A stretch of 62,669 nucleotides of DNA from Gemmatimonadota bacterium (lineage in GTDB: Bacteria; Gemmatimonadota; Gemmatimonadetes; Gemmatimonadales; GWC2-71-9): contig SHZT01000015.1 of the NCBI GenBank assembly GCA_009692185.1, positions 1 through 62,669 of the forward strand. Direction: 5' to 3'. The notes beneath the pieces were generated by a model that was not told the origin of the DNA, did not search any database, and saw only the letters and a program-made list of their open reading frames with translations. Each line of letters opens with the position of its first letter. Positions within the stretch are counted from its first letter, which is position 1. Positions 1 to 7,526 of the stretch are shown in pieces. A program made the position numbers and the translations under genes.

Positions 1-420
1 GCCCGTCTCCCATTGTTCCGCTAACAGGTCCCACACGAATCCCAACGTGTCGAGCTTCGCACGCCGTTCGGGGGAGAGCGTGCCCTTGCTGGCCGCCGTG
101 CGTTGCTTGCCGACCCACTGGCCCAACCGGTATCCGTCCTCTTTGTGTAAGCCGGGAACCAGACAATCGCTTTTACGAGCGTGATACGCCTCCAAGTGCG
201 CATAGCCCGTCTCCCATTGTTCCGCCAACGGGTCCCACACGAATCCCAACGTGTCGAGCTTCGCACGCCGTTCGGGGGAGAGGGTGCCCGCAGTTGCCGC
301 TTTCCGCTGATGGCTGACCCACTGGCCCAACCGGAATCCGTCCTCTTTGTGTAAGGCGGGAACCCGACAATCGTCTTTACGAGCGTGATACGCCTCCAAG
401 TGCGCATAGCCCGTCTCCCA
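1..420 (-). repeat. 204-bp tandem repeat coding for helicase-associated domains
   Basis: Two complete units (1-204 and 205-408) and the start of a third (409-420). By my hand alignment the two units differ at about 20 of 204 positions, roughly 90% identity at DNA level. The unit length is 68 codons, so the array stays in frame within the helicase gene. Differences cluster in one 35-base stretch of each unit, around positions 85-121 and 289-325. The array continues past the left edge, so copy number is unknown. Confidence 0.9.
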
Positions 421-2388
421 ACTCGACGTTGTCCGTTCAAGGATGCGGAGTGTCAGCGCCTGCGCGAACGCCGTACTGACCCGCGTCGGAACCCGCAGGA
501 TGATCTTCGACGGCAGCCGTGCCCCGGCCTGCCCCCTTTTCAGCGCGACGTCTCGACGCAGGGCGTCGAGTTCCTCGCCGAGGACCTCATCGTGCGCCCG
601 CAGGGCTTCGACCACGCGCCAGGTGTAGGCATAGGCTGACCCTTCCAACTCAGACGTCGCCTCCCCGGCATCGTCAGGGATCACCAGCGGCAGAACGATG
701 GTGCTATCCCCGGACTTGTCGTCCGACTTGCGGAGCGCCCGCCCCACGGCCTGCACGATGTCCGTTTCGCTGGACTTGGGATCGACAAAGACGATGCCGT
801 CCAGAGCGGGCACGTCCACGCCCTCCGACAGGCACCGCGCATTGGTGACGAGGCCGGACTCTCCCCCGGTTCCTTCCTGTAGTCGGCGTAAGACCTTCCG
901 ACGTCGGTGGACGGGGTCCTCACCGCTCAACGTCTCCGTCCAGACCGAGCCTGTCGGACGTTTGGTCTGGGGTAGCCACTTGGTAACGCGGAGAAACCGA
1001 TCTGCGAACACCTTGGCGAGCTTCACGCGGCTGTGAAACGAGATGGTGCGCCGCATCCCGAACTCCCGCATCGTGCGCGCCAGCGCGACGTGGGTGGCCA
1101 ACTCCGATGCCTCAGCCACATCCTGGTCGTCGTGCGTGACATAGGCTCGTTGCGCGATTTGGTCCGCCACCTCGCCGGGGGTCACGCCGATGATGACCAC
1201 CCGATAGTCGGAGAGCAGGTCCAGTTCGATGGCTGCGCGGAAGGACAGGCGATGGAAGACCGGCCCGTACTGCGTGGCGTCATCCATCGAGATGACTTCA
1301 ACAGCGTCGTCGTCAGCATCGGGCACTCGTCGGGCTTTGTAGATGCGTGGCGTGGCGGTCAAGAACAATCGACGGTCCGCCCCGATCTGGGCATCGTCGA
1401 GCGGGCGGTGAAAGTCCGTCCCTGACAGTCCGGTGGTCCGGTGCGCCTCATCGGCCACCAGCAAGTCAAACCGGAACGGGTTCCCGCGCAGGGCCTCCGC
1501 GATCACCACCGACGACTGGTACGTCGCAAACACCACCACCGCTCCCGCGTTCTCCTCGAGCGTCTGTCGCAGTCGTGCGGCGTCCGTGGTGGGGGGAACC
1601 GCCAAGTCGAGGGAAGCGGCCCCCTCGCCCTCGCTGTCTGGGCCGCCGATGGTTTGGTCGGAGCAGACCACGATGGCCGTGTAGGGCGAACTTCTTTGGG
1701 CCTGCCACGCACGGAGGGTCTGGTCAACCAGGCCAAGCGACGGGCAAAACACGATGGCCCGCTGAGACCCCAGCGCCTCCTTGGTCCACAACGCGGTGAG
1801 CGTTTTGCCCGTCCCGCAGGCGTGGATGACCTGGCCCCGCGCACTACTCCGAAAGCCCTCGACGGTCGCCGCTATCGCCTCGCTTTGGTGCGGGCGTGGG
1901 GTGAGTCGGGGAACGGTGATAGTTGGCTTTGTCAGGTCTGCCAACCCCACATCGTCCGGGAGGCCGAGGTCCCGGAGTCGTTCGCGGTCGATGATGATCG
2001 CTTGTTTGCCGCAGCGTTGCAGTTGGTGTCGGGCGCGTTGGCCCACGGACTGGGCGGTGGTCATGAGGACCAAGCACGCGATTTCAGGCTGCGCGGCAGC
2101 CGCCCCAACGAAGGTGCTGATGTCGGCCCACGTCACGTCGTGATCGGGGGCATGAGCTTTGGCCTGGATGGCCCAGAGACGCCCCGTTCGCTCTTGGGCG
2201 ATCAGGTCGATCCCAATATCCGGCCCCCACCGATATCGTTCGTGGTAATGCTTCCACGCCCACACCTGAACAAGGTCGTCCCGATAGACCGCCGACTGGC
2301 GCAGGATCCAGGGCACGACCTGAAACTCGAAAGCATCACCTCGTGGCTTTGGGGCGAGGGAATCCAGGTCCTGGAGGAGGCGTCGCAT
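1..2388 (-). CDS. Mrr-like nuclease / SF2 helicase with tandem helicase-associated (HA) domains, partial
   Basis: The gene runs off the left edge, so the C-terminus is missing; 796 codons are visible. The ATG is preceded in frame by a TAG four codons upstream. Residues ~1-150 look like a PD-(D/E)XK nuclease of Mrr type: GIDLIAQE (D61), then AIQAKAH (QxK, K77). Residues ~160-560 are a superfamily 2 helicase: TPRPHQ, Walker A ACGTGKT (~190), DEAH box (~313), TATP (~344) and motif VI QAVGRALR (~546). From ~657 onward there are repeated HA domains with the WETGYAHLEAYHARK signature. Inference: a DNA-translocating restriction or defence enzyme, similar in plan to the nuclease-helicase part of single-chain (type ISP) restriction enzymes, but with HA repeats where a methyltransferase would be. 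No methyltransferase is visible. It lies just inside an island boundary at a tRNA gene. Confidence 0.85.
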   Translation of the reverse strand, partial: MRRLLQDLDSLAPKPRGDAFEFQVVPWILRQSAVYRDDLVQVWAWKHYHERYRWGPDIGIDLIAQERTGRLWAIQAKAHAPDHDVTWADISTFVGAAAAQPEIACLVLMTTAQSVGQRARHQLQRCGKQAIIIDRERLRDLGLPDDVGLADLTKPTITVPRLTPRPHQSEAIAATVEGFRSSARGQVIHACGTGKTLTALWTKEALGSQRAIVFCPSLGLVDQTLRAWQAQRSSPYTAIVVCSDQTIGGPDSEGEGAASLDLAVPPTTDAARLRQTLEENAGAVVVFATYQSSVVIAEALRGNPFRFDLLVADEAHRTTGLSGTDFHRPLDDAQIGADRRLFLTATPRIYKARRVPDADDDAVEVISMDDATQYGPVFHRLSFRAAIELDLLSDYRVVIIGVTPGEVADQIAQRAYVTHDDQDVAEASELATHVALARTMREFGMRRTISFHSRVKLAKVFADRFLRVTKWLPQTKRPTGSVWTETLSGEDPVHRRRKVLRRLQEGTGGESGLVTNARCLSEGVDVPALDGIVFVDPKSSETDIVQAVGRALRKSDDKSGDSTIVLPLVIPDDAGEATSELEGSAYAYTWRVVEALRAHDEVLGEELDALRRDVALKRGQAGARLPSKIILRVPTRVSTAFAQALTLRILERTTSSWETGYAHLEAYHARKDDCRVPALHKEDGFRLGQWVSHQRKAATAGTLSPERRAKLDTLGFVWDPLAEQWETGYAHLEAYHARKSDCLVPGLHKEDGYRLGQWVGKQRTAASKGTLSPERRAKLDTLGFVWDLLAEQWETG

Positions 2389-2529
2389 CGTGGGTTGCTA
2401 GCCTTCCCCCCTAGACCAAGCAGCGCCAAGAAACGTGCGGACGGTAGACAGCGAGACCACCCGAATTGGCAATTCTCGCTCCTGGACGGCGGGCCGAAAC
2501 CTGTCGTGCCCTTTTTGTGCCTCTTTCTG

Positions 2530-2601
2530 CGGCTAGCCTCGGCTAACGGGCAGGCTTGAGGCGGCTACGAAGAAACGCTAAGTGCGCTACAGCGGCTAAC
2601 G
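2530..2601 (+). repeat. Four short direct repeats CGGCTA(A/C/G)C next to the attachment site
   Basis: CGGCTA begins at 2530, 2540, 2562 and 2593; the copies at 2540 and 2593 share CGGCTAACG. The last copy is also one arm of a hairpin with TAGCCG (2602-2607), and a second perfect 8-bp hairpin (2604-2611 with 2618-2625) ends next to the tRNA fragment. The rest of 2389-2629 carries no gene I can support. Spaced direct repeats beside a tRNA-derived att site resemble arm-type sites for a tyrosine integrase or excisionase; this role is inference. Confidence 0.45.
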
Positions 2602-2630
2602 TAGCCGAAACGGCCTAGTTTCGGCCAGTC

Positions 2631-2685
2631 TTGGAAAGCGTGTGAGCGGGAAACCGTTCCGTGGGTTCGAATCCCACTCTGTCCG
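2631..2685 (+). other. Attachment site: displaced 3' half of tRNA-Ser(GGA)
   Basis: From the anticodon loop to the discriminator this is a good serine tRNA: loop TTGGAAA with anticodon GGA (2633-2635), 3' anticodon strand GCGTG, long variable arm GAGCGG-GAAA-CCGTTC, T arm GTGGG-TTCGAAT-CCCAC, acceptor strand TCTGTCC and discriminator G; CCA is not encoded. The 5' half is absent: bases before the loop (CAGTC) do not pair fully with GCGTG, and no GGACAGA acceptor strand lies upstream. This is what is left at the far end of an element that integrated at a tRNA gene and regenerated it at the other end, here beyond the left edge. The next base begins the convergent leuD-like stop codon. Confidence 0.8.
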
Positions 2686-3189
2686 TCAGAACCCACCGCG
2701 GGCCTTCACGTACGGGACGAGTCCCCCGGCCTCGAGAATCTCGAGCATCACACCAGGCAATGGCGTGCCGGTGACCGTCCTCCCCCTGGTCTCGTCCCGC
2801 ACCTGTATCGCGCCGTCTGCCATGGCGATCGTCACCCGGTCCCCTTCCCCGATCGCCTCCGTGTCGCATTCGACCGGCACCAGCCCGTTGTTCACCGCGT
2901 TCCGGTAAAACGTTCGGGAGAAGCTGCGCGCGACCACGGCCTTGATCCCGGCCGCAAGAATCACCGTGACCGCAATCTCCATGGCCGAGCCACAGCCGAA
3001 GTTCCGGCCGGCCACAATCACGTCGCCGGGTTGGACGGAGGCGGCGAAACCGGGATCCACCGTTTCCAGCAGGTATTGCTTCAGGACCGATTCGTCGAGG
3101 GTGTCGCGCTTCCGGGCCGACGTGATGATGTAATCACTGTTGACGTCGTCGCCCAGCCGCCGCGCTCGGCCGGACAGGTCAATGCGCAT
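2686..3189 (-). CDS. leuD: Aconitase-family hydro-lyase small subunit (3-isopropylmalate dehydratase type)
   Basis: 167 aa, the usual length for a LeuD swivel-domain subunit. The GRNFGCGSAMEIA motif (~62-74) matches the substrate loop of the family (GxNFGCGSSREHA in classic LeuD), with an altered SAMEIA tail. It works as a heterodimer with the large subunit encoded just upstream; the two genes overlap by 11 nt. Context is unusual for leucine synthesis: no leuA or leuB is near, and the run contains an aminotransferase, an RraA-fold aldolase and a dicarboxylate carrier. The enzyme could therefore isomerise or hydrate another branched hydroxy-diacid, such as citramalate, 2,3-dimethylmalate or homocitrate. 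The family is clear; the substrate is not. Confidence 0.85.
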   Translation of the reverse strand: MRIDLSGRARRLGDDVNSDYIITSARKRDTLDESVLKQYLLETVDPGFAASVQPGDVIVAGRNFGCGSAMEIAVTVILAAGIKAVVARSFSRTFYRNAVNNGLVPVECDTEAIGEGDRVTIAMADGAIQVRDETRGRTVTGTPLPGVMLEILEAGGLVPYVKARGGF

Positions 3190-4405
3190 TGTCAGGCCCC
3201 AACGTGCGCGGGTCCGTAATGGAGCCCGTGACCGCCGCGGCCGCGCACGCGGCCGCTGACGCCAGGTAAATCGACGCGCTCGAGCGCCCCATGCGTGCCT
3301 TGAAGTTCCGGTTCGCCGTGGACATCACCGTTGCGCCGTCGTCGGGAATAACACCACTGGTACCGCAGCAGGCGCCGCAGCCGGGCGGGGTCACCACGGC
3401 GCCCAGCGCCGACAGACGGGCAAGCGAGCCGTCCCGCTCGAGCGTCCGTTGGACCTCACGGGACGCCGGCGTCACCACCAGCTGCACACCCGGTTTGACG
3501 CCGGCGCCGGCCCGCTCGAGAACACCGAGGGCCGCGTGGATGTCCGACACCCGACCCCCGGTACACGTTCCGATGAACACCATGTGCACCGGCTGGCCGC
3601 TGGCCTCGGCGATATCCGAGACGTGGTCTGGTGCGTGCGGCCGCGCCACCTTGGGCGCGATGCTCGCGAGGTCCAGCGCCACCTCACGGGCGAAGCGGGT
3701 ATCGCGATCGGACGTCACCGCGCCCGGGAAAATGCTCGCCTTCGCGCCCATCTCGACGCCCATGCTGCAGATCACCAGGCGGTCCTCCAGGGAAAGCCCC
3801 GCGACCGCCGGGCCGTCGAACTCGAGCGCCTGGTACGAGGCACCCTCGGCCCCCATGAGGCCGACCAGGTGCAGCGCGATGTCCTTGGCACTTACCGACT
3901 CCTGCCACGCGCCGGTCAACGTGACCTTGATCGTCTCGGGCACCCTGAGCCACACCTGCCCGGTGATCATCGCCCCCGCCAGGTCCGATGACCCGACGCC
4001 CGTCGCGAAGGCATTCAGCGCGCCGCATGTGACCGTGTGACTGTCCGCGCCAATGACGAGGTCCCCCGAAGACACCAGCCCCCGCTCCACCGCGACCTGG
4101 TGACTGATCCCGTCCCCCACCTCGAGCACCGTGACACCAAACCGTTGGCCGAATGCGCGGATCCGCTCGTGGAACGCCCGGGTCGCTGGAATGGATGGCG
4201 GCGAATAGTGATCGAGGGCAAACATGACACGGGTCGGGTCGAACACCCGGTCGCCGCCCATGCGCTCGAAGTAGTCAATCGTCATGGGACCGGAGGCGTC
4301 GGTGCCGAGCACCCGATCGACGCGACACACCACCACATCCCCCGCCCGCGCATCCCGGCCTGCCTTGGCCGAAAGGATCTTCTCGCTGACCGTCCTACCG
4401 ACCAT
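3179..4405 (-). CDS. leuC: Aconitase-family hydro-lyase large subunit (3-isopropylmalate dehydratase type)
   Basis: 408 aa from the ATG giving MVGRTVSEKILS; the open frame extends 31 codons further upstream, but only through the palindromic repeat and the end of the permease gene. Iron-sulfur ligands are present: C280 in GTCTGG, and C342 and C345 in GCGACC. GADSHT (~118) and the GPMTIDYFE stretch (~38) are family motifs. With the small subunit it makes a [4Fe-4S] dehydratase/isomerase acting on 2-hydroxy di- or tricarboxylic acids. The start overlaps the permease 3' end by 11 nt, so these genes are probably cotranscribed. Assignment to leucine synthesis is only by family; the neighbours point to carboxylate catabolism. 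Confidence 0.85.
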   Translation of the reverse strand: MVGRTVSEKILSAKAGRDARAGDVVVCRVDRVLGTDASGPMTIDYFERMGGDRVFDPTRVMFALDHYSPPSIPATRAFHERIRAFGQRFGVTVLEVGDGISHQVAVERGLVSSGDLVIGADSHTVTCGALNAFATGVGSSDLAGAMITGQVWLRVPETIKVTLTGAWQESVSAKDIALHLVGLMGAEGASYQALEFDGPAVAGLSLEDRLVICSMGVEMGAKASIFPGAVTSDRDTRFAREVALDLASIAPKVARPHAPDHVSDIAEASGQPVHMVFIGTCTGGRVSDIHAALGVLERAGAGVKPGVQLVVTPASREVQRTLERDGSLARLSALGAVVTPPGCGACCGTSGVIPDDGATVMSTANRNFKARMGRSSASIYLASAAACAAAAVTGSITDPRTLGPDNAH

Positions 4406-5708
4406 GACGTTCCCCCTCTCCCGTATGGGAGAGGGGGTCAGGGGGTGAGGAACGCGTGGCGGAGAGAAGGCCCGGTCGGGAGATAACAACGGAGCCAATC
4501 AGGTTGCCAATGGTATTCACCGTCGTGCGGAACATGTCGAGCGGACGATCCACGCCGGCCACGAGCGCGATGCCGGCTGCCGCCTGTGGACCGAGGCCAA
4601 TCGCGTTGAGGACGATCAGCGTGGTCACCAGGGAACTCCCCGGTACGCCCGCCCCGGCAAACGCCGCCAGCGTCGAGGTGAGAACAATCACCACGATCGC
4701 GCCGGCGCCCAGCGGAAACCCGTACAGGTGCGCGAGGAATACGGCAGTCACGGCCTTGTACACGGCCGAGCCGTTCTTGTTGATCGTGGCCCCGGACGGC
4801 AACACGAATCCGGCCACGGACACCGGCACGTTGAGGCGCGTCGTCGCCGCCGCCATGCTCACCGGAAGCGTGGCGCTGGAGGACGACGTTGAGAACGCGA
4901 GGAGCAAGGCGTCGGACACACCGCGGAAAAACCGGACGGGCGAGTACCCGGCGCCGAGCCGGAGCACCGGAACGAGAACCACGGCCACGTGCACCGCGAG
5001 CGCCAGGACGACGACCCCGCAAAACGCCAGCAGGTCTGCCAGGAGGTCGAGGCCGAACCGCGCGACCGTCGCCGCGACGAGAACCAGGACCGCCGCAGGG
5101 GCCAGCCACATCAGCCACTGGATGAGGACCATCGCCGCGTCGTTGATGCCTTCGAAGAAGGCCAGCACCGGCCGGCGGCGATCGACCGGAATCGCCGTCA
5201 GCGCGGCGGCGAACAACACCACCGCCACGATGAGCGGCATCAGCTCCCCTCGCGCCGCGGCGCCGAACGGATTCGTCGGCACCATGTCCGTCAGCGTCCG
5301 GACGAGGCCGGGCACCCGCGGCGCGGCGGCCATGGCCTCCGCCCCCCGCTCACCGATGGCGCCCAGCGTAGCGCGTGTTTCGGAGGCCACGCCGAGCCCC
5401 ACGCCCGCCCCCAGCGCGACCCCGGCTCCGATAACGGCCGCGAGGAGAGTGGTGCCCACGAAGTAGGCCAGCGTAAGCCCGCCGATCCTCCCGACGCGGC
5501 GGACGTCCCCCAGCGAAGCGATGCCGACGATAAGGCTCGCCACCACCAGGGGAATGACAATCATCGTAATGAGGCTGATGAACGCGGTGCCCAGCGGCTC
5601 GAGCGCGATGAGCGCCAGATCGAGGCCCGTCGTACCGGAGGTTTTCGAGAGCGCACCCAGCGCCACGCCCGCCGCGAGGCCGGCGAGGATCCGGCTGTGG
5701 AGCTTCAT
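4395..5708 (-). CDS. Dicarboxylate/amino acid:cation symporter (DAACS, GltP/DctA type)
   Basis: 437 aa with many hydrophobic segments. It carries the family hallmarks: the serine-rich re-entrant loop (STSSSSATLPVSM) and the following PSGATINKNG motif, the counterpart of NMDGT. Proteins of this family import C4-dicarboxylates or acidic amino acids with sodium or protons across the inner membrane. The last ~15 codons (SSPPDPLSHTGEGE) come from a palindromic repeat and probably replace the original tail. It lies between the aminotransferase gene (3-nt gap) and the leuCD-like pair, so it likely supplies their substrate. A second, diverged copy of this family heads the catabolic operon at 51233. 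Confidence 0.9.
   Translation of the reverse strand: MKLHSRILAGLAAGVALGALSKTSGTTGLDLALIALEPLGTAFISLITMIVIPLVVASLIVGIASLGDVRRVGRIGGLTLAYFVGTTLLAAVIGAGVALGAGVGLGVASETRATLGAIGERGAEAMAAAPRVPGLVRTLTDMVPTNPFGAAARGELMPLIVAVVLFAAALTAIPVDRRRPVLAFFEGINDAAMVLIQWLMWLAPAAVLVLVAATVARFGLDLLADLLAFCGVVVLALAVHVAVVLVPVLRLGAGYSPVRFFRGVSDALLLAFSTSSSSATLPVSMAAATTRLNVPVSVAGFVLPSGATINKNGSAVYKAVTAVFLAHLYGFPLGAGAIVVIVLTSTLAAFAGAGVPGSSLVTTLIVLNAIGLGPQAAAGIALVAGVDRPLDMFRTTVNTIGNLIGSVVISRPGLLSATRSSPPDPLSHTGEGERHGR
4412..4450. repeat. Dispersed palindromic repeat, copy A
   Basis: CCCCTCTCCC-GTAT-GGGAGAGGGG, a perfect 10-bp inverted repeat with a 4-nt loop, followed by GTCA and GGGGGTGAGG. The same architecture (arms, loop size, GGGGGTGAGG tail) recurs inside a TPP-enzyme gene at 52979. 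Here it forms the last codons of the permease gene and lies just upstream of the leuC ATG on the minus strand, where it could fold in the mRNA. Confidence 0.75.
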
Positions 5709-5711
5709 GGC

Positions 5712-6812
5712 CTAGTCGGCCAGCACTTCCTTCAACGCATCCATGGTCCGGTCCACGTCGGCCATGCGAATGTCGCCCATGTGGCCGATCCGGAACCCAT
5801 TCGCCTCAAGACGTCCCAACCCGCCCGCCGCCTGGATACCCCGGGCCCTGAGCCCGTCCCGCACCGCCTTGGGGCTGACGCCGTTCGGCAACGCGAACGC
5901 CGTCACGGTGGGCGAGAGACGCTTGAGATCCGGACACTGGAGCATGATCCCCAGCGCGGCGGCGCGACTGCGCGCGCGCTCCGCGAGCGCCTCGTGCCGC
6001 TTGAACACGTTCTGGAGTCCCTCTTCCTGGATCATGACGAGCGCCTCGGCCACCTGCATGAACAGATGGACCGGCGACGTGCGATGGGCACCCAGGTCAC
6101 CCCGCGCGATACTTTCCTTGAAGTCCATCAGGTTCCAGTAGTTCTTCGGCAACTTCGCGGTTTCCATGGCCTTCCAGGCGCCCTCGCTCAGCGCGACGAA
6201 CGCAAGACCGGGGCTCGACATGAGGCATTTCTGCGACCCGGTGACCGCGCAGTCCACGCCCCAGGCATCCATTTCAAAGGGCGCTCCGCCCAGGCTCGAA
6301 ATCGCGTCCACCAGGACGAGCGCCCCGTGCTTCCGGGCAACCGCGGCCACACCCTGAATGTCGTTCAGCACGCCGGTCGCCGTGTCGGACTGGGTGATCG
6401 CCACCGCCCGCACATTGGGGTTCTTCGAAAGCACCTGCTCAACCTCCGCCGGGTCCGCACTCTGCATCCAGTCGGTACACACCCGGTGCAGGCCGAGCCC
6501 GTAGGACGTCGCCAGTTCGGCCCACATCTCGCCGAACCGTCCGTTGCACGACACGACGATCTCGTCGCCCGGCGAGAGCAGATTCGTGATGCCCGCCTCC
6601 ATGCCGCCCCTGCCCGTGGCATAGACCGGCAGCACGGTGCGAGATGTTCCGAAGAGTGGCTTCATCTGTTCCAGCACCGCCGCGTGGATCTGGGAAAACT
6701 CCGGCGTCCGGTGGTGAATCATCGGGACCGCGCCGGCGGCCAGGACGCGGTCGGGGACCCGGGTCGGGCCCGGCGTCATCAGCAGCGGCGCATCAGCGGA
6801 TCGGGAGGCCAT
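5712..6812 (-). CDS. Class V aminotransferase, alanine/serine-glyoxylate type
   Basis: 366 aa, full length for the family. It opens with the typical LLMTPGPTRVP and carries LVDAISS with D169 (contacts the PLP ring) and TGSQKCL with K195 as the predicted Schiff-base lysine. Family members move an amino group between alanine, serine or a related amino acid and a 2-oxoacid, often glyoxylate. The start overlaps the RraA-family stop (TGATG), so translation is coupled. Beside an aldolase that acts on 4-hydroxy-2-oxo acids, a plausible job is to make or use a 2-oxo diacid. The exact donor cannot be read from sequence. Confidence 0.85.
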   Translation of the reverse strand: MASRSADAPLLMTPGPTRVPDRVLAAGAVPMIHHRTPEFSQIHAAVLEQMKPLFGTSRTVLPVYATGRGGMEAGITNLLSPGDEIVVSCNGRFGEMWAELATSYGLGLHRVCTDWMQSADPAEVEQVLSKNPNVRAVAITQSDTATGVLNDIQGVAAVARKHGALVLVDAISSLGGAPFEMDAWGVDCAVTGSQKCLMSSPGLAFVALSEGAWKAMETAKLPKNYWNLMDFKESIARGDLGAHRTSPVHLFMQVAEALVMIQEEGLQNVFKRHEALAERARSRAAALGIMLQCPDLKRLSPTVTAFALPNGVSPKAVRDGLRARGIQAAGGLGRLEANGFRIGHMGDIRMADVDRTMDALKEVLAD

Positions 6813-7492
6813 CAGGAAATCACGCCCTTCTTTCGCAGGGTGTCGTCAATCTCGGGTTTGGTGAACTCGCCGGCCTTGATCTCGGCGACTCGGCGGCGTT
6901 CACGATCCATCAGTTCGTCCACCAGCTTGAGCACTTCCAGCACGTCGGCCCGGGGCACGACCACCACGCCATCGGCGTCACCCACGACCATGTCGCCCGA
7001 CGCCACGACCGTGCCGCCGCACGCCACCGGGATGTTGATCTCGCCGGGGCCGTCCTTGTCGCACGCCCCCGGGCTCACCGCGCGGCTGAAGACCGGGAAA
7101 CCCAGCGCTCGCAACTCCTCGACATCTCGTACGGCGCCGTCTACCACGATCCCGCCGAGTTGCTTCGCGACGGCGGTGTGACACATCAGGCCGCCGAACA
7201 CCGCGCTCGTCAGGCTGCCGCAGGTATTGACCACGATCACGTCGCCTGGGACGGCCACATCGAGCACCTTGTGCACCATCAGGTTGTCGCCCGGCCGGCA
7301 ACGGACCGTGACTGCGGGCCCCCGCAGGGATCGCCCGGTGCGCGACTGGATCCCGGGGTCCATGAAATTGAACCGCCCCATGGCATCGGCCAGGTTCGAC
7401 GCCGCCAGTTTCGCGAAACGCTGGAGTATCGCGGCATCCAGCCTGCTGGGTGACGGCAAGACGCGGAATCCCGGTTTCCCCGTGTGTGTCAT
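6812..7492 (-). CDS. RraA-fold aldolase/decarboxylase (HMG/CHA aldolase family)
   Basis: 226 aa. The stretch VVDGAVRD holds R122 and D123, matching the arginine and aspartate that 4-hydroxy-4-methyl-2-oxoglutarate / 4-carboxy-4-hydroxy-2-oxoadipate aldolases use for catalysis and metal binding. This favours an enzyme over the RNase E regulator RraA. Such enzymes split 4-hydroxy-2-oxo acids to pyruvate and often decarboxylate oxaloacetate. It is the first gene of the run RraA-aminotransferase-symporter-leuC-leuD. A hydrolase or unknown role of the wider RraA superfamily cannot be excluded. Confidence 0.82.
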   Translation of the reverse strand: MTHTGKPGFRVLPSPSRLDAAILQRFAKLAASNLADAMGRFNFMDPGIQSRTGRSLRGPAVTVRCRPGDNLMVHKVLDVAVPGDVIVVNTCGSLTSAVFGGLMCHTAVAKQLGGIVVDGAVRDVEELRALGFPVFSRAVSPGACDKDGPGEINIPVACGGTVVASGDMVVGDADGVVVVPRADVLEVLKLVDELMDRERRRVAEIKAGEFTKPEIDDTLRKKGVIS

Positions 7493-7526
7493 GCGGTTAT
7501 CAGAATGACTGAACTGCGGCCTTGCG

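What the first reader, a model, noticed from the sequence alone, without database searches (positions are those of the whole stretch)
2631..2685. Displaced tRNA-Ser(GGA) 3' half marks the right end of an integrated element
Seen: from anticodon loop to discriminator the tRNA is perfect, but the 5' half is absent and the anticodon stem is broken exactly at the loop. Known: tyrosine integrases use the anticodon loop to 3' end of tRNA genes as att and leave a displaced 3' copy. Inference: everything left of ~2630 is an island, and an intact tRNA-Ser(GGA) plus integrase lie beyond the left edge.
Basis: partly seen in the sequence, partly recalled or inferred. Interest (0 to 1): 0.7.

Follow-up and report, generated by a model that had tools for sequence, protein, structure and literature searches.

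The report
Right attachment site of integrated element
A stray 3' half of a serine tRNA gene marks where a mobile DNA element inserted into the chromosome of an uncultured bacterium; the matching 5' half was found at the end of another contig of the same genome, so this is a well-documented but ordinary integration scar.

Summary
Confirmed and largely supported. Window 2631-2685 (+) is the 3' half of tRNA-Ser(GGA), 97% identical to the intact gene of a same-genus genome; the 5' half is absent to its left. The missing 5' half lies at the very end of another contig of the same assembly (C30, minus strand), cut off 10 nt into the shared core CTTGGAAAGC. Joining the two flanks gives a perfect tRNA-Ser(GGA); its acceptor pair 7:66 is A-U here but G-C in the relative, a compensatory change split over two contigs. 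The 124 bp left of the core (2506-2629) are homologous (72%, E 3e-11) to the right end of a prophage-like element in another family of the order. That element has an intact tRNA-Ser(GGA) next to a tyrosine integrase at one end and a displaced 3' half at the other. A 16-mer in this stretch also lies beside two related integrases and nowhere else in 288 genomes. So 2506-2685 is an attR, and everything left of 2630, including a restriction-type helicase gene, is element. Its integrase and the restored tRNA are missing from the bin and remain inferred. Known kind of feature; the mild novelty is an apparently undescribed integrase/attP family.

The parts
1..2388 (-). Element cargo: Mrr-type nuclease + ResIII-type helicase + tandem HA domains; 3' end cut off by the contig edge
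   Evidence: Pfam HA 7e-43, Mrr_cat_2 6e-21, ResIII 4e-17; PADLOC type IIG N-terminal part; a second 5' end of the same gene ends contig C29
2506..2521 (+). Putative arm-type integrase site GTGCCCTTTTTGTGCC (two direct copies of GTGCC 11 bp apart)
   Evidence: Exact 16-mer occurs 3 times in 288 genomes of the order: here, beside the G041 integrase and beside the G025 integrase; function inferred
2530..2607 (+). CGGCTA repeats at 2530, 2540, 2562, 2593 and inverted TAGCCG at 2602: putative binding sites in the attP arm
   Evidence: Same spacing in the G041 attR; function inferred
2506..2629 (+). Element side of attR (attP arm)
   Evidence: 72% over 126 bp to the G041 element end, E 3e-11, 57 bits against at most 31 for 200 shuffles
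2630..2639 (+). CTTGGAAAGC, stretch shared with the 5' half on contig C30: minimum extent of the att core (C30 ends there)
2631..2685 (+). Displaced host 3' half of tRNA-Ser(GGA), U32 to G73
   Evidence: 97% to intact G001 gene; completes the C30 5' half into a perfect tRNA
2686..3189 (-). leuD-like gene, first chromosomal gene right of the element; its stop codon abuts the tRNA discriminator
   Evidence: Aconitase_C 9e-16; block 2786-7502 collinear with G001 and G053

Best explanation
2506-2685 is the attR of an integrated mobile element (prophage or genomic island; which of the two cannot be told). A tyrosine integrase recombined the element's circular attP with the host tRNA-Ser(GGA) gene at the anticodon loop. 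The host 5' half, now at the end of contig C30, was joined to a 3' half carried by the element, which restores the tRNA. The host's own 3' half was pushed to the far end of the element and lies at 2631-2685 next to leuD. The repeats at 2506-2521 and 2530-2607 are arm-type binding sites of the integrase and its helpers. Shown: the half tRNA, the matching 5' half, the empty site when the flanks are joined, and a homologous complete element in G041. Inferred: the integrase and restored tRNA in the unassembled gap, the function of the repeats, and the helicase as cargo.
For: 97% match to the intact congener gene. 5' half at C30:1-45 and perfect joined tRNA with a compensatory 7:66 pair relative to G001. 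Homologous element end in G041 bounded by intact tRNA-Ser(GGA) + integrase. 16-mer arm site found only here and beside two related integrases in 288 genomes. 22 of 30 related integrase loci lie beside a tRNA gene. Conserved chromosomal gene order to the right.
Against: The element's integrase, its other end and the restored tRNA were not seen: no relative of the G041 integrase in the bin. leuD is not next to tRNA-Ser(GGA) in G001 or G053, and no terminator separates the half tRNA from leuD, so the right flank may have been trimmed or rearranged.
Confidence: 0.94

Rival explanations
1. Assembly chimera: unrelated DNA was wrongly joined to the leuD side inside the tRNA gene, and no element junction exists in the cell.
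For: Draft metagenome-type assembly; contigs C10 and C30 both end around this locus.
Against: The same junction, arm sequence running into a tRNA-Ser(GGA) 3' half, exists in an independent genome, G041; a chimera would not reproduce it.
Confidence: 0.03
2. Old remnant: a true attR, but the element has since decayed or lost its integrase and the stretch left of 2506 is not mobile any more.
For: Only 2.6 kb of the element is visible; the right flank seems trimmed against leuD; no integrase of this clade in the bin.
Against: The arm sites are well kept and the helicase gene is open over 796 codons. This is a variant of the best explanation rather than a contradiction.
Confidence: 0.3
3. Split tRNA gene: the two halves on C30 and C10 are transcribed apart and joined in trans.
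For: The bin holds the two halves and no intact gene.
Against: The left flank of the 3' half is a conserved attP arm; C30 stops inside the tRNA at a contig edge, so an intact gene there would be cut off; relatives carry whole genes.
Confidence: 0.01

Closest known systems
tRNA-gene genomic islands and prophages with anticodon-loop crossover (Islander database, PMC4383910)
   Same: Displaced 3' tRNA fragment at one end, target split at the anticodon loop, element on the 5' side of the fragment, flanks rejoin into a whole tRNA.
   Different: Restored tRNA and integrase of this element not seen, because the contigs end there.
Prophage-like element at tRNA-Ser(GGA) in G041
   Same: Same target gene, same crossover point, homologous 124-bp arm with the same repeats.
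   Different: Other genes next to attR: no Mrr-helicase-HA gene there. The type of the window's element is unknown.

Membership tests
Tyrosine-integrase element in a tRNA gene | Displaced tRNA 3' fragment starting at an att core | tested here: met
   2631-2685
Tyrosine-integrase element in a tRNA gene | Flanks rejoin into an intact target gene (attB) | tested here: met
   C30 end + window from 2640 gives a perfect tRNA-Ser(GGA)
Tyrosine-integrase element in a tRNA gene | Restored intact tRNA at the other end | tested here: inconclusive
   Only nt 1-41 present; C30 ends inside the gene
Tyrosine-integrase element in a tRNA gene | Tyrosine integrase gene inside the element | tested here: inconclusive
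   Not in the bin (none of the four found is at C30 or C10), but present in the homologous G041 element
Tyrosine-integrase element in a tRNA gene | Arm-type repeats beside the core | tested here: met
   Repeats shared with G041 attR and attL and with G025; binding not tested
Tyrosine-integrase element in a tRNA gene | Excision as a circle | not testable with these tools
   Needs reads or PCR

The most novel reading that the evidence does not exclude
The window, G041 and G025 carry members of an undescribed family of integrative elements in this bacterial order, marked by a divergent tyrosine integrase (no Pfam hit at 1e-3, no match among 50,697 phage records) and a GTGCC-repeat attP arm that is kept while the tRNA target changes (Ser-GGA, Pro-UGG).
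Probability: 0.5. Interest if true: 0.3.

Novelty: new member of a known kind. Interest (0 to 1): 0.17.

Why it matters
It fixes one end of a mobile element in a draft genome of an uncultured bacterium, says which two contigs (C10 and C30) flank it, and explains why a nearly complete bin seems to lack tRNA-Ser(GGA). The conserved arm site is a handle for finding sister elements.

Tried and rejected
The G041 integrase has no relative in the own genome. The left end of C10 overlaps no other contig end. Rfam's hit at 2643-2685 (Plastid-psbl-rps4, minus strand) is below its gathering score and is the antisense of the tRNA half. Integration at a secondary, non-tRNA site was considered and rejected: the sequence right of the core is a host-type tRNA 3' half (97% to the congener), so the target was a true tRNA-Ser(GGA) gene.

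Full report
Observation. Window 2631-2685 (+) is U32 to G73 of a tRNA-Ser(GGA). ARAGORN reports no tRNA in the window. The closest match is the intact gene of the same-genus genome G001, 97% over 2630-2687. The window is the whole of contig C10 (62,669 bases) of a 30-contig, 2.63-Mb assembly rated 99.94% complete, so the left edge of the window is a contig edge.

The other half. The tRNA genes found in the bin include Ser(GCU), Ser(CGA) and Ser(UGA) but no Ser(GGA). A search with the G001 gene found the half in the window and one other strong match: C30:1-45, minus strand, 96% identical to 4 upstream bases plus tRNA nt 1-41. Contig C30 stops there. The two pieces share CTTGGAAAGC (window 2630-2639). 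Joining C30 to the window from 2640 onwards gives an 87-nt tRNA-Ser(GGA) with all stems paired. Base pair 7:66 is A-U in the joined gene and G-C in G001, and the two changed bases lie on different contigs. That is strong evidence that the two halves were one gene.

The left flank. Window 2506-2629 is 72% identical over 126 bp (E 3e-11; 57 bits, best of 200 shuffles 31 bits) to the sequence just left of a displaced tRNA-Ser(GGA) 3' half in G041, a genome of the same order but another family. A stricter 30-base pattern from this stretch matches only these two of 288 genomes of the order. In G041 the arrangement is complete: intact tRNA-Ser(GGA) at C8:81923-82010, an integrase at 82647-84041 (PHROG integrase, 3.7e-29), DnaB-like helicase, terminase small subunit, head protease and tape-measure genes, and the displaced half at about 97796-97858. 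That the integrase is of the tyrosine class rests on PHROGs and on motifs read by eye; Pfam gave nothing at 1e-3.

Arm sites. 2506-2521, GTGCCCTTTTTGTGCC, is found exactly three times in 288 genomes of the order (the reversed control pattern once): in the window, between tRNA-Ser(GGA) and the integrase in G041, and between tRNA-Pro(UGG) and a 54%-identical integrase gene with stop codons in G025. A near copy sits at about the same distance from the core in the G041 attR. CGGCTA occurs four times in 2530-2598 with an inverted copy at 2602; three of these and the inverted copy recur in the G041 attR. Repeats on both arms beside the core are what arm-type integrase sites look like; binding is inferred. 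Of 30 related integrase loci in the order, 22 lie beside a tRNA gene.

Cargo. The gene at 1-2388 joins an Mrr-type nuclease, a ResIII-type helicase and tandem HA domains, resembles the N-terminal part of type IIG restriction enzymes, and has plasmid relatives at under 60% identity. A second 5' end of this gene, 96% identical over 54 residues, ends contig C29, where it follows a tyrosine integrase, a small HTH-like protein and a regulator-like gene beside tRNA-Cys. The gene is thus probably cargo shared by two elements in this genome (inference).

Right flank. 2786-7502 is collinear with blocks in G001 and G053 and is taken as chromosome. In those two genomes leuD is not beside tRNA-Ser(GGA), and here the leuD stop codon abuts the tRNA discriminator with no terminator between, so the native neighbourhood in this lineage is either unusual or was trimmed after integration.

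Place among known things. The Islander database describes this signature: a restored tRNA gene and a displaced fragment that mark the ends of an island, with 3760 3'-fragment cases and a large anticodon-loop crossover class (PMC4383910). Such fragments are expected to be pervasive in prokaryotic genomes (PMC9897764). The finding is a new member of a known kind. The G041 integrase has no match among the phage records searched, so the integrase/attP family may be undescribed; that is the only mildly novel point.

Noticed in passing
Own genome C19:37256-37338, C14:135508-135590, C2:33236-33319: Three long (class II, Leu-like) tRNA genes with non-Leu anticodons GUC (Asp), CGC (Ala) and CAC (Val) by ARAGORN; could be odd tRNAs, pseudogenes or miscalled loops.
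   Followed up: no
Own genome C28:1-244: tRNA-Pro(GGG) at the contig end with a second copy of its 5' 40 bases at 205-244, possibly a trace of an element using the 5' half.
   Followed up: partly
Own genome C29:80127-82978: tRNA-Cys, tyrosine integrase, small HTH-like protein, regulator-like gene and the start of a near-identical copy of the window's helicase gene: probably a second element with the same cargo; the integrase lies on the 5' side of the tRNA.
   Followed up: partly
G041 C8:81.9-112.4 kb (L191, L192): Two elements in tandem at tRNA-Ser(GGA), each with an integrase and a displaced 3' half; G060 C6 shows three 3' copies within 14 kb. The gene is an integration hotspot in the order.
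   Followed up: partly
window 1-420: Tandem 204-bp repeat (91% identical over 216 bp) encoding HA domains; probably why the contig ends at window base 1.
   Followed up: no
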